Source: Harmothoe impar
Lineage: Eukaryota; Annelida; Polychaeta; Phyllodocida; Polynoidae
NCBI GenBank assembly: GCA_947462335.1
Contig: OX381704.1
Location: 123,366,004 to 123,430,003 of the forward strand
Direction of reading: 5' to 3'
DNA length: 64,000 bases
The notes beneath the pieces were generated by a model. It made no database searches. It was not told the DNA's origin and saw only the letters and a list, made by a program, of their open reading frames with translations. A program made the translations under genes and the position numbers. Of this stretch, positions 23,101 through 63,600 are shown piece by piece (within the stretch, counting starts at the first letter, position 1; each line of letters opens with the position of its first letter).

Positions 23101-26100
23101 GCTGTCTCCCACGGCCACGTTGCTCTCATGTGAATCAGCTGTTCTCTAACCTGCTGACACAGCACTTTTCATCGTCCCCACGTTTCCCTGCTAACTGACA
23201 TTGACAAGTATCCTGACAAGTGTCACCGCCACCGACATTACAGACAAAACTCACGAGGCCCTCTCCTCAGGCCTGGCGACCCCACACAGCCTCAGGCCGC
23301 CGCCCTAGGATGGCGATGGCGTCCCTCGTGCGTCTCTCAGGCGTTCTGCTTGCCGACTTTTAAGTGTCCCAAAGTCGTACTTCCAAGGCCAATCTGACTT
23401 CCAAACCTCTCTGCGTTTACCTCAATCCTTCAGGCGTAGATCTAAGCATAACTGGGACCATAACCTATTGGTTTTCTTGAGGTTTCATGCATAAAACGAC
23501 AAAAGACTGACTCCTGCTTCCATCGTGACAAGGAAGGCGCCAACTTGTGACGTCACATTTATTAACGGAAGTGAATGTGAACGCTGGTTGCCCGTAACAT
23601 ATTTTCCCGCGTGGTCAAATAATCTCAACAGTATTTTACCTTAACTCAAGTCCAATTTTGTAAATATTCATGTTTGGATTATTCAATAAAATGTGATAAC
23701 CCTAAAACTCACATGTGGTTATTTGATTAGAAAAAGAGTACACCGATGTTTTCTAAATCTGGTGATTCAAATGTTTATTGGCTTTGATATCAAAGAATAG
23801 GTGCATTGCCAGTAATAGCATGAGTATCAATAGTTGCGCTGATTAGGGCAAATTATCATTGGGCTCTGGTTGTTGGTCCTGTTGTAAATTGTTTGAAAAG
23901 TCATATTAGAAAAAAATGATATATTCAGTAATTACATATCATATAACGTGGGAATCAGCCATCAAAAATTGTAATTGTATAACATCGGTCATTTTGCTAC
24001 CCTATTAGGAAAGGGTGTTGCTAAATTATGAAAACAATATCATGTTTGACCCTACATGGGATTTATTCAAGGGGAATATAAATTAGGTACATAAACTAGG
24101 ATTGAGTTGGGGGTCTTAAAATTCCACAAGAGCAAGGAGATCTAATTTATGAATGATTGTCTAATATAGTATTATACAATTTCGACTCAGTGTTTCTGTA
24201 TTGGTTATCTTTATCTTTTAAGGGAGATGGTCCAGATGGAAGGAAGCAAGCTGCTTGAACCGCTCAGTGACTCACCACCTCCAGTCACGATACGGTTATA
24301 CGCTGACCCCGGGGACGGCAAGACAAGTTTTGCAAGGTACAACGTTTACTCCTGGAGTGTAGAATTCCTCAAACTCAACAAAGGCGGAACTCTTTGTGTG
24401 AAATCGGGCTCACCCAAATGGACGACCATGGTGTTCCTTACGGCCCGGGATATAAAGAGCACAGTAGAAGCCGCCATACGGGACCAGTTAGGGTGTAGGA
24501 ATACTGACCTCCTAATGGCCCATATCAATGAAGGCGAAGGCATTGTCATCTTCATAGATGGGTACGATGAGTGTCGCGACCCTAAAATACTGAAAAAAAT
24601 CAATGACTATGTTCGTGCATGTCAGAGAAAAAGGGGTCCAACTGTTGTTCTCACGTGTAGAACCAACCTCTGCAGTATAGATGGGGAGTACTTTGACAGG
24701 TTTGTCAGTCTCTCAGGTTTTACCAAAGAACAAGGGTTGCAGTACATCAAGCTGTACACAGAGATGTGTGAGCCCCACCTCCCTCACATGCCACCTGTGT
24801 ATGAGTATGCTCTACGACATCAGCCAAAGCTGGAGGCTGTTCTCTGTAACCCTCTGAAGCTGCATATCTTTGCAGCTTTGGCCTGCAGAGGTGAGATCAA
24901 CCTGAGTGTTGAAAGCGAGTTCAACATACCCACCTTATTTGTACCATTAGAAAGACACCTCCTCACCAGAGAAGAAATTGAAGTCACAGAACACGAGAAG
25001 CAGGACTTTCATAGGTTTGCTATGCACGTTCTTCTCAATGATATAAAAGAATTTCCCCAGAGTTTGCTTCAGCAGTTTGACATAAAGAAACCCTTCCACA
25101 TCTTCCTCAAACCATCTACCAGACGGGACAAGACCGGTACACTTGTGTCCTACCACTCATTCGGACACGAGATGGTACTGGAATACTTCGCGTCTAGGTA
25201 CATCATAGGTCTCACTGATGAGGACAGAACCTCCTTCCTGCTGCTGATATGCCGTGACAGAATGATGAGAAACGTACAGAAGATCATATTTGAGCTGCTG
25301 TTACAGGAGGGTCACACTCAGCTAGAACTGCTGCAGACCATGCTGCGCCTCATCATCATCCTTCAGGCTTCAGCTCCTGACATCACTTGGACTCTACGTG
25401 ACAGGATCCTGGGAGGAACTCTGTATGACTTGGTGCACCTGCCTGACAAGATACAATCTGACCTCCCTCTGGACAAGATCCTGCTTTCTCAACGTGGCAG
25501 AATCACCATAAAGGGAGCGGCAAGTATCCACAACAAGGTGAACAAAGCATTCATCTCACATGCTGACATGCTGAGAAGCTCTGGTTGGTTCACTCAGATT
25601 AAGGGCAGAGACAATGGTACACTACACCACGTGGTGGGCTGTTTACAAGCCTGTACCCCTGATGTACAGCAGCAACTCATCCAGAACACCATCCACCTGA
25701 TGCTGCCGTGTAGATGGGAGGATGGATATGGACACCCAAGGTAAGTATTATATACATTGTATCCACCTGATGCTGCCTTGTAGGGGGTAGAGGAATAGGG
25801 TAAGTATTATATACATTGTATCCACCTGATGCTGCCTTGTAGGGGGGTAGAGGAATAGGGTAAGTATGATATACATTGTATCCCCCTGATGCTGCCATGT
25901 AGGGGGTAGAGGAATAGGGTAAGTATTATATACATTGTATCCCCCTGATGCTGCCGTGTAGGGGGGTAGAGGAATAGGGTAAGTATCATATACATTGTAT
26001 CCCCCTGATGCTGCCTTGTAGGGGGGTAGAGGAATAGGGTAAGTATTATATACATCGTATCCCCCTGATGCTGCCATGTAGGGGGGTAGAGGAATAGGGT

Positions 26101-60600: not shown

Positions 60601-63600
60601 GTATGTATGTATGTATGTATGTATGTGTGTATGTATGTATGTGTGGATGTGTGTGTCTACATATATATATACATGTATGATATACTGGTGTATGTAATAT
60701 AATGTATGTGTACATGTCGACATGTATGATATACTGGTGGCAGATGTGGCAACACGTAATGATTTCACCCCTTTCTAGCAAAAACACCTGCACATTTCTA
60801 TGGCTCAAAGGAGTCACTCACATTAAATTTGAACCCGGCTGGGTGGGCCATAATTCTTAGACCCCTATCGTAAGGGGGTGGGACTAACATATTAAAGCGT
60901 GTTCATGCAAAAATCTACCAAACCACCGCCTAACTCACTTGTACTGGAAGGTCTGCCTTGGGGTGATGGGACATTGTGAGACGCCCCCTGCCCCGTCCAT
61001 CCACGGGGAGCCCAACTGAGCCTGTCCGTGCCAGTGCAGCGTGATCACCTCGTTCTCCATCTCGTTTGTCACAAACACCGACACCTGCAGCAAGTACACA
61101 CAGTTCATAACCACACATACAATACACCGTAACTACAGTTCAGCCATACACATCTCCCTGATCACACAGATAATACACAGTAATCCCCATCTCTCTTTTA
61201 AAAACATGTATTACATGTTTTATTTTGATAACTTGGATTATGGATCCGCCTCCAAGATTTTTGGCATTTTGCAAAAAAAAAAAAAGTTTTATTTTATTTT
61301 TTACCTTTCCCCTCTGAGCTTTTTTTGGGAAAATTTTACTTTAAAAAAAAAAGTACATGCTGACCAGCAAAAGGTAGAATGAGGCCTTTCAGATTGGGTA
61401 TATTTCTCAACATATCTTCCTTAGATTACCCAAAAATGAGGTTTTCCTTTTTTTTTTCCTCTGCCCTTCGGGGAATTTTTTGATCCAGCTCCTCCCGTGC
61501 GGCAGCTTTTTTTTGTGTTTTTTTCCTCTGCCCTTCCAAACTGTTGGAGCCAAAAGCCCGTAATCCAAGTTATCAAAATAAGGTGGCCTAAAGATAAAAT
61601 CAAAAAGTGCTGAATCTGATTGTTCGTATCCCTAGCTGAGGGTGAAATCTCAGCTATAATCTCTACGTATCCGCTCAGACAGAGTCAGGGCGGATTAACC
61701 TTGTGTATACTGTACATAGATCTCACTGGTTGCACACAACAGGATAGGAGTGAAATGTATGACTTTAATGTATGGAAGTTCATGGGAAGTATGGAACTTC
61801 ATGTCCCATACTTAATTGTATGGCAAATCATTTGACATTCATGATGACTTCATACATTACAAGGAAAGCACAAAAAGTATGTTTGAAATAGTAGGGGAGA
61901 TAAAGCATTTGTATTTGAACATGTTATAATAAGAAAAGTAGCCACGTATAATTGATTTACTACTTTTCCTTGATTTATTACTTCTATCTATTTGTAGATA
62001 CTTCTTTGGTTACAATGAACCATTACATTTAGTTGTGTGAGGCGCCTAATCTATTTAACAAGAACGTCTGTCATGTGTGCCCCTGTCCCACATTCCCACC
62101 TCACGTTATAAAAAGGCACCTCAAATTGTAATATCCCTAATTAGGTCACATCTTATGACTTTAGCAGTTAATGGTGTTTTTAAGTTCATTGACATTGGGG
62201 GAACAGACATGTGTGGGATTGGGAACCAACTGTCCTTGGGGAGGTACCAAGTGTATCGTGCTTGGGTGGCCCCGGGAAGCGCCCGACAGTGTAGACCTAG
62301 GATTGTATTAGCTATACGTTTGTTTCTATGAGCCATACGTGTGTTTCTTAGAGCCCAAAAAGACTTTATGACAAGGGTGTGTGACCAAAAAGCATTCCTT
62401 GCACTTTGGTGTAACCCTGAACGGTGATTAGAGTCACATCAAATGATTTAAACAGTATGTTCTCACTGCATTGGCATGGCATTGCAACAGCTATTCATGA
62501 TGTACATGTATGACCTATGTAACCAGTTGTTGTAAGCTCCCACGGGTTACATGTTATACATTGACAGGGGTGTGGGCAGGACGACTCTCTGACAAGCCTT
62601 ACCTCTTACTCAAGGAAAATGTCTGTGAACCTTGCTTAGAGTAATTGGGATCAAAAGTCACCCTTTTATCAGGTGAATGTCTCGGCTAAAGGGAATTTGG
62701 TACACTACACTCACCGTCTGTCCCTTGTAAACCACGATGGGCGTCCCTGGGAACCGACTGTTGACGGAGATGATCTTCTTGTAGGAACCGTCCCCGCTCA
62801 GAAACGTCTCAAAGTCTGCAACCAACGGGACTCATTATACACAACGTGTACCGCCAACATCACTCATAAAGCACCGCTATACTTGTACATAGACAATAGA
62901 TAATGAATTATAAAGAAGAAAAACCTATAATATTTGTGACTGCAGAGGGTTTTTTGGCGACCTGGCGACCTGGGCCGTTTTCCAGGCGACTTTTCGACCT
63001 GGGGCAATAATTTAAGCAACCTGGCGACTTTTGCACAAAATTGATTATAGGATAAAGGGTCTAAAAAAACGACCTTGCGGGTCTTAATTTCGGCGACTTT
63101 CCAACCTGAGGGGGGGACCCCTCTGCACCCCCATATTTATGTGGTTAATAATTATTACAGTGGGATTTCCATACTACTTACATTTATATCCTGGATCCCC
63201 CACCACAACTGGCCCCTGGATCCTGGGTCAGCCCCACAACTGGCCCCTGGATCCTGGGTCACTCCCTACAACTGGCCCCTGGATCCTGCACTTAGAAAAT
63301 AAACTTGTCTCCAGACTCTTCAAAGTGACGGTCATAGAATAAACGAGTCAAAAACTTGTCTAAGTGACAAGGAAGCGGGTCTTCTAGCTGGAGATAGCAG
63401 ACCCACTTGGTATGTGCCAGCCCAAAACCCGACATTTGCCAGCTCCAGATTCTATTTGTGGGATGGTAACCTGATACGTTAGACAACTTTTGACTCGTTT
63501 ATTTTATGACAGTCACTTCGACGAGTCTGGAGACGAGTTAATTTTTTCAGTGTGGGTCACTCACCACAACTGGCCCCTGGATCCTGGGTCACCCCCTACA

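What the first reader, a model, noticed from the sequence alone, without database searches (positions are those of the whole stretch)
25741..60748. Minisatellites seeded at exon-intron junctions are the rule, not the exception, here
At least ten arrays in three unrelated genes have a unit consisting of the adjacent exon edge plus its splice site: NLR exon 9 donor, NLR last-exon acceptor, type II gene exon 2 acceptor, and laccase exons 4, 6, 7, 8, 12, 14 (donor end) and 15, plus the laccase stop region. The arrays always touch the true junction and copy only its side. I recall similar 'mirage' minisatellites from the amphioxus Adh locus; the density seen here suggests a genome-wide process acting on splice junctions, perhaps linked to R-loops, splicing-coupled breaks or template slippage at polypyrimidine tracts.
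Basis: partly seen in the sequence, partly recalled or inferred. Interest (0 to 1): 0.88.

Follow-up and report, generated by a model that had tools for sequence, protein, structure and literature searches.

The report
Splice-junction minisatellites in a scale worm
Near a chromosome end of a scale worm, a laccase gene, its neighbouring twin and two other genes carry tandem repeats built from an exon edge plus its splice site; the repeats likely arose by copying slips between short matching stretches, and this kind of repeat was known before from amphioxus genes.

Summary
The arrays are real. By sensitive alignment 9 of 30 laccase junctions have them, plus the stop codon. The window is chromosome 1 of the scale worm Harmothoe impar, an annelid, 0.67 Mb from a TTAGGG telomere. 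The arrays match the 'mirage' minisatellites reported from amphioxus Adh, globin, TnC and PGBD5 genes. A tandem laccase paralog shares seven of the nine and has the empty site at two. The exon-7 unit runs between two 6-base matches, which suggests microhomology-primed tandem duplication.

'The rule' and 'genome-wide' go too far. Most laccase junctions have no array. The window has 6 to 10 times more long arrays than 215 kb of interior gene DNA. In laccase A, 9 of 14 arrays sit on a coding boundary against 2.1 expected, but that gene was chosen for this; in eight other laccase-family regions it is 3 of 22 against 1.55 (P 0.15). The stop-codon array argues against a splicing-driven cause.

The parts
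48372..63940 (-). Laccase A: 16 exons, 15 introns, 769 aa
   Evidence: open frame, GT..AG; PF07732, PF07731, PF00394
60205..60577 (-). E4 acceptor array: exon edge + splice site + CATA tract, period 189, 2 copies; 8-base match GCCACCAG between exon and intron
58655..58796 (-). E6 acceptor array, period 59, 2.4 copies; laccase B has the empty site; 33-base filler between copies
57852..58127 (-). E7 acceptor array, period 87, 3.2 copies; laccase B has the empty site; 6-base match GCCCCT (exon of A, intron of B) at the unit ends
56988..57527 (-). E8 acceptor array, period 46, 12 CAG|GTCT sites in a row, the true one included
53430..54449 (-). Intron 11, by eye made almost wholly of E12 acceptor units (period 104, 10 sites, the true one included)
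52345..52721 (-). E14 acceptor array, period 52; exon-like part short; one copy in laccase B
51417..52241 (-). E14 donor array, units of about 130-190 bases with CA tracts, 6 donor sites, the true one included
50817..51047 (-). E15 acceptor array, period 95, 3 copies separated by TG tracts
50478..50512 (-). E15 donor relic copy; 12 copies at the same donor in laccase B
48608..48660 (-). E16 acceptor 2-copy duplication, also present in laccase B
46550..48394 (-). Stop-codon array, 21-base unit in frame, 88 copies; 61 in-frame stops within 1.9 kb, the true one included
25741..28127 (+). NLR-like gene, donor array, period about 60, 42 GTAAGT sites, the true one included
28161..28266 (+). Decayed longer copy of the NLR exon tail (25614-25721) on the far side of the array
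30762..31311 (+). NLR-like gene, acceptor array, period 82, 7 TTTCAGGT sites; exon not confirmed by homology
37782..38850 (-). Type II membrane protein gene (by eye), exon 2 acceptor array, period 67 and multiples, 16 sites; longer in the paralog block

Best explanation
These are mirage-type minisatellites, tandem repeats whose unit is an exon edge plus its splice site (once a stop codon), in an array-rich stretch 0.67 Mb from a telomere of the scale worm Harmothoe impar, likely born by microhomology-primed tandem duplication and kept, it is inferred, because the outermost copy leaves the exon whole.

Shown: units, positions, host, telomere, array density, paralog copy-number differences, two empty acceptor sites, and strong purifying selection between the two laccases.

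Inferred: birth by slippage or microhomology end joining between a short exon match and a short intron match; later growth on the intron side by unequal exchange or slippage, with the exon copy left behind; neutrality; and that the decoy splice sites are mostly unused. Why coding boundaries are hit more often than chance in this gene is not explained. A raised local duplication rate plus removal of in-exon duplications accounts for part of it only.
For: Paralog comparison: seven laccase junctions are shared, E6 and E7 acceptor arrays are in A only. Laccase B has one copy at E6 and E7. At E7 the unit ends at GCCCCT in the A exon and begins after GCCCCT as read in the B intron; E4 has an 8-base match. 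Random exon/intron breakpoints in laccase A give 6 or more matching bases in 0.25% and 8 or more in 0.09% of 200,000 trials.

Density: long arrays (150 nt or more) 3.28 per 10 kb in the window and 3.50 in the next 40 kb, against 0.55, 0.34 and 0.33 in three interior sets. The contig ends in TTAGGG.

Four array introns are older than the arrays: introns 3, 5, 11 and 14 sit at the same position and phase in paralogs on other chromosomes. Laccase A/B pN/pS 0.07. The stop-codon array shows the geometry needs no splice site.
Against: Geometry alone predicts 2.1 boundary arrays of 14 in laccase A; 9 were seen, so something favours boundaries there. The E6 array contains 33 bases absent from the empty site of B, so at least one birth was not a plain duplication. 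Only two births had a readable microhomology, and both were found by looking for one. At E7 the A intron itself now reads GCCCC then G, so the sixth base is taken from B. At E4 the intron match lies 481 nt upstream, far more than the present 189-base period, so a later shrinkage must be assumed. Other chromosome ends were not sampled; the comparison sets are gene-targeted, not random. RNA was not seen. The only SRCR junctions with a copy (L067, L068) lie about 1.7 Mb from a contig end, but in 3.1 kb poor in arrays.
Confidence: 0.62

Rival explanations
1. A process aimed at splice junctions (R-loops, splicing-coupled breaks) makes the arrays all over the genome.
For: 9 of 14 non-transposon arrays of laccase A on a boundary against 2.1 expected; arrays on junctions also in laccase-family genes on C7, C3 and C20, and a duplicated donor in an SRCR gene pair on C13.
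Against: Interior sample: 3 of 22 arrays against 1.55 expected, P 0.15. Same array type on a stop codon. G-rich strand is sense at the NLR donor array, antisense at the laccase stop array.
Confidence: 0.17
2. Pure placement and selection: tandem duplications fall anywhere, those inside exons are removed, and junction arrays are simply the visible remainder.
For: Interior sample not clearly above chance; an array inside an open frame at 17330-17559 has a period of 33, a multiple of three.
Against: Laccase A 9 of 14 against 2.1 and laccase B 7 of 12 against 1.65 expected, though the two are not independent and were chosen after the fact.
Confidence: 0.15
3. The arrays are remnants of intron birth by tandem duplication of exon sequence (Rogers model).
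For: Intron 11 consists by eye almost wholly of exon-12 edge units; the globin paper proposes mirages as a source of introns (PMC3087553 passages). Introns 6, 7, 13 and 15 had no same-place match in the paralog models.
Against: Array-bearing introns 3, 5, 11 and 14 are shared in position and phase with paralogs on other chromosomes.
Confidence: 0.03
4. Assembly artefact, or two haplotypes placed side by side.
For: The genome note says 266 haplotypic duplications were removed, so some may remain (PMC10541532).
Against: HiFi assembly, QV 58.6. Both laccases are intact, differ by 11% at synonymous sites, and carry arrays with different copy numbers.
Confidence: 0.03

Closest known systems
Mirage minisatellites of amphioxus (Adh3, globins BflGb6 and BflGb9, TnC, PGBD5)
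   Same: Tandem units spanning an exon-intron boundary at 5' or 3' exon edges, many copies with AG or GT kept, unit lengths of tens to about 160 bases, copy number differing between copies of a gene.
   Different: Here in an annelid, on 9 of 30 junctions of one gene, also on a stop codon, inside an array-rich stretch near a telomere, with two empty sites in a paralog. Allelic and somatic instability and normal splicing, reported for amphioxus, were not tested here.
Intron gain by tandem genomic duplication (potato RdRp, PMC4974935, title and abstract start in a listing)
   Same: Tandem duplication linked to splice signals.
   Different: There a gained intron is the topic; here four of the array introns are old and gained copies at their edges.
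Human subtelomeric minisatellites (HRAS1, CEB1, CEB25; PMC3486850, abstract start in a listing)
   Same: Minisatellites close to a chromosome end.
   Different: No exon edge in the unit is mentioned in what I saw; here many units hold one.
Earthworm metallothionein intron-1 minisatellites (PMC12783039, passages)
   Same: Annelid gene, intronic minisatellites differing between tandem gene copies; exon-4 duplications absent from the transcript.
   Different: The passages do not describe units built from an exon edge plus splice site.

Membership tests
Mirage minisatellites | Tandem unit contains an exon edge and its splice site | tested here: met
   7 of 30 laccase A junctions at the strict threshold, 9 of 30 at the sensitive one, plus NLR-like and type II genes
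Mirage minisatellites | Both donors and acceptors can be affected | tested here: met
   Acceptors E4, E6, E7, E8, E12, E15 and donor E14; donor E15 in laccase B
Mirage minisatellites | Copy number unstable | tested here: inconclusive
   Copy numbers differ between paralogs A and B; alleles and somatic tissue not available
Mirage minisatellites | Regular splicing is kept in spite of decoy sites | not testable with these tools
   Intact frames and pN/pS 0.07 fit it; no RNA data
Introns born by tandem duplication | Intron absent from paralogs that lack the array | tested here: not met
   Introns 3, 5, 11, 14 shared with paralogs on other chromosomes; introns 6, 7, 13 and 15 had no same-place, same-phase match and stay open
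Junction-targeted duplication process | Arrays on junctions above random placement in a sample not picked for its arrays | tested here: inconclusive
   3 of 22 against 1.55, P 0.15; without automatically flagged inverted-repeat arrays 2 of 17 against 0.71, P 0.16

The most novel reading that the evidence does not exclude
Coding boundaries are true hot spots of tandem duplication in this annelid as in amphioxus: a convergent or ancient animal process keeps multiplying splice sites and stop codons at the edges of living genes, so that genes carry some forty spare copies of a splice site, a standing supply for new introns, exons and protein ends.
Probability: 0.22. Interest if true: 0.82.

Novelty: new member of a known kind. 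Interest (0 to 1): 0.6.

Why it matters
In the rows my paper searches showed, mirage minisatellites appear only in lancelets. Finding them dense in a scale worm means the phenomenon is not a cephalochordate oddity. The tandem laccase pair gives filled and empty sites of the same junction, which lets the birth step be read. A gene pair under strong selection with up to 12 acceptor sites in a row, and an NLR-like gene with 42 donor sites, also make a natural test of how the spliceosome picks the outermost of many equal sites. RNA-Seq runs and an alternate haplotype for this animal are named in its genome note (PMC10541532), so both questions can be tested now.

Tried and rejected
Amphioxus as host: rejected by the mitochondrial COX1 (98% to a Phyllodocida cluster, then scale worms) and by exact scaffold lengths.

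Copies of 60-base tiles: interior intron tiles have copies more often than junction tiles (49 of 158 against 6 of 30 in laccase A, 50 of 163 against 6 of 30 in B, score 45 or more). This count mixes births with the length of grown arrays, so I replaced it with the collapsed placement test; it is a result against a simple 'junctions are special' claim.

Eighteen further laccase-family loci: 48 edges, 2 flagged, none accepted: L005 is a 21-base array about 130 nt upstream of the acceptor, read in the sequence; L004 is a 42-base array between two coding hits, not read further.

GC content as the driver: the 13 junction units average 44% GC, the 22 other arrays with 3 or more copies 51%, known exons 56%, the rest 42%; no support for GC-rich seeding at junctions.

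Concerted evolution: E8 and E14 donor copies are as alike between A and B as within each; no sign of separate homogenisation.

Rows dropped or merged in the placement test. Laccase A, 23 rows: three pairs merged, four inverted-repeat rows set apart, two rows beyond the stop array left out; with the four included 9 of 18 against 2.36. Laccase B, 18 rows: two pairs of non-junction rows and the two E12 rows merged, one T-rich row, one inverted-repeat row and three rows beyond the stop left out; E4 and E15 acceptor copies added. Some interval ends were typed and are approximate.

In the interior test the automatic inverted-repeat flag also took out the C3 array, whose TRF period of 171 is three 57-base units; both ways of counting are given.
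Full report
HOST. The window lies at C1:123366004-123430003 of a genome of 1,511,831,793 bases in 736 contigs. The COX1 on the 15,367-base contig C736 is 98% identical to a Phyllodocida cluster, then 93% to the scale worm Branchipolynoe. The genome note of the scale worm Harmothoe impar gives a longest scaffold of 124,100,948, N50 83,397,641 and N90 65,536,652, the exact lengths of C1, C8 and C20, and a mitochondrion of 15.37 kb (PMC10541532, part 1 of 3 read). The last 1 kb of C1 is TTAGGG repeats, 0.67 Mb beyond the window.

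THE ARRAYS. Laccase A has 16 exons with GT..AG introns and an intact 769-aa frame (Pfam). Strict copies of exon edge plus splice site in the adjacent intron: E4, E6, E7, E8, E12, E15 acceptors and E14 donor, plus the stop codon. The sensitive search adds the E15 donor and E16 acceptor: 9 of 30. The E14 acceptor array has an exon-like start too short for that test. Splice signals recur, the true one included in each count: 12 acceptor sites in a row at E8, 10 at E12, 6 donor sites at E14, 42 donor sites in the NLR-like array, 16 acceptor sites in the type II gene. The stop array repeats the last seven codons in frame, with 61 in-frame stops in 1.9 kb. In the NLR-like gene the array lies between the real exon tail and a decayed longer copy of it.

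THE PARALOG. Laccase B lies about 35 kb further towards the telomere, in a tandem block covering window 37.7-64 kb. It encodes the same number of residues; pS is 0.108, pN 0.0074. Seven of nine array junctions are shared. E6 and E7 acceptors of B are empty. At E7 the B intron reads GCCCCT then AACC, the A exon GCCCCT then GGAGG, and the A unit runs from one to the other: a tandem duplication between two 6-base matches. The A intron now reads GCCCC then G, so the sixth base rests on B. The B exon lacks this match. At E4 an 8-base match GCCACCAG lies in the intron at -481 and in the exon at the end of the unit, and the intron bases after it resemble those after the exon part of the copy; the present period of 189 is shorter, so a later shrinkage is assumed. 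Random breakpoints reach 6 or more in 0.25% and 8 or more in 0.09%. At E6 the A copies hold 33 bases not present at the empty site of B, flanked by copies of acceptor plus exon head, so an insertion with flanking duplication is more likely there. At the E15 donor A has one relic copy while B has 12.

AGE. Introns 3, 5, 11 and 14, which carry arrays, match in position and phase introns of paralogs on other chromosomes; introns 6, 7, 13 and 15 had no such match. At least these four introns are older than their arrays.

IS IT JUNCTION-SPECIFIC? I collapsed each array to one unit and placed it at random in the gene outside wholly exonic positions. Laccase A: 9 of 14 non-transposon arrays on a boundary (stop included), 2.1 expected, 0 of 200,000 trials; without the E14 acceptor 8, P 6e-5; with four inverted-repeat arrays 9 of 18, 2.36 expected; units of 60 or less 4 of 9, 0.54 expected, P 0.001. 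Laccase B 7 of 12, 1.65 expected, not independent. These genes were picked because of the arrays. Sample not picked for arrays, eight laccase-family regions on eight contigs: 3 of 22 arrays, 1.55 expected, P 0.15: a 51-base donor array with 7 copies on C7, a 57-base donor array over 2.8 kb on C3 (exon read by eye), a 19-base donor duplication on C20. By junction: 2 of 81 consensus junctions, the C3 donor being outside that list. The gene models behind this are spliced alignments to distant proteins; with a protein of 47% identity the aligner found 26 and 27 of 30 known junctions of laccase A and B, with 34 and 32 predicted, so some interior junctions are wrong. SRCR exons: 2 of 40 edges, a paralogous pair on C13 at 1.65 and 1.71 Mb, counted as one event. 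Eighteen further loci: 48 edges, 2 flagged, none accepted. A plain tile count gives no excess at junctions.

LOCAL DENSITY. Non-simple arrays of period 15 or more cover 22.2% of the window and 18.4% of the next 40 kb, but 5.1%, 2.5% and 3.0% of the interior sets (127, 58 and 30 kb). So the window is an array-rich stretch near a telomere; whether other chromosome ends are alike was not tested.

READING. Most likely: short-match tandem duplication at a high local rate; duplications across a coding boundary leave the exon whole through the outermost copy and can then grow on the non-coding side. That the stop codon is treated like a splice site favours this over splicing-coupled breaks. The excess at boundaries in laccase A is left open.

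PRIOR WORK. Mirages are described in amphioxus globins with the Adh3 precedent, length instability and normal splicing (PMC3087553 passages) and in PGBD5 with TnC (PMC3902484 passage). In the rows shown by my searches (one search showed 20 of 56, 12 of 1,032) I saw no annelid case of an exon-edge unit; the nearest is the earthworm metallothionein paper (passages). The original Adh paper did not open under the DOI I tried from memory and is known to me only through these passages.

Noticed in passing
window 5904-10704, minus strand: Run of open frames that by eye look like a Polinton (Maverick) element: integrase, packaging ATPase, protease and capsid-like frames. Only the frame listing was seen.
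   Followed up: no
window 38995-39242, 56494-56758, 49041-49971; C4 region, L001, L003, L017: Elements, most with a matching inverted partner nearby, whose ends are made of short 17-base (or 33-36-base) tandem arrays; seen in introns or flanks of genes on several chromosomes.
   Followed up: partly
window 17330-17559: Array of 33-base units (7 copies) inside an open frame; the period is a multiple of three. No Pfam family; gene assignment not tested.
   Followed up: no
L067, L068 (C13 1.65 and 1.71 Mb): An SRCR exon tail with its donor is duplicated about 99 bases downstream, with telomere-like CCCTAA repeats between the copies.
   Followed up: partly
G000:C466:6571-7902: A second, divergent COX1 in the assembly, perhaps from another organism or a nuclear copy.
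   Followed up: no
L049-L050 (C3:22277000-22291000), gene orientation 4820-7652: Donor array of 57-base units over 2.8 kb in another laccase-family gene, far from a chromosome end.
   Followed up: partly
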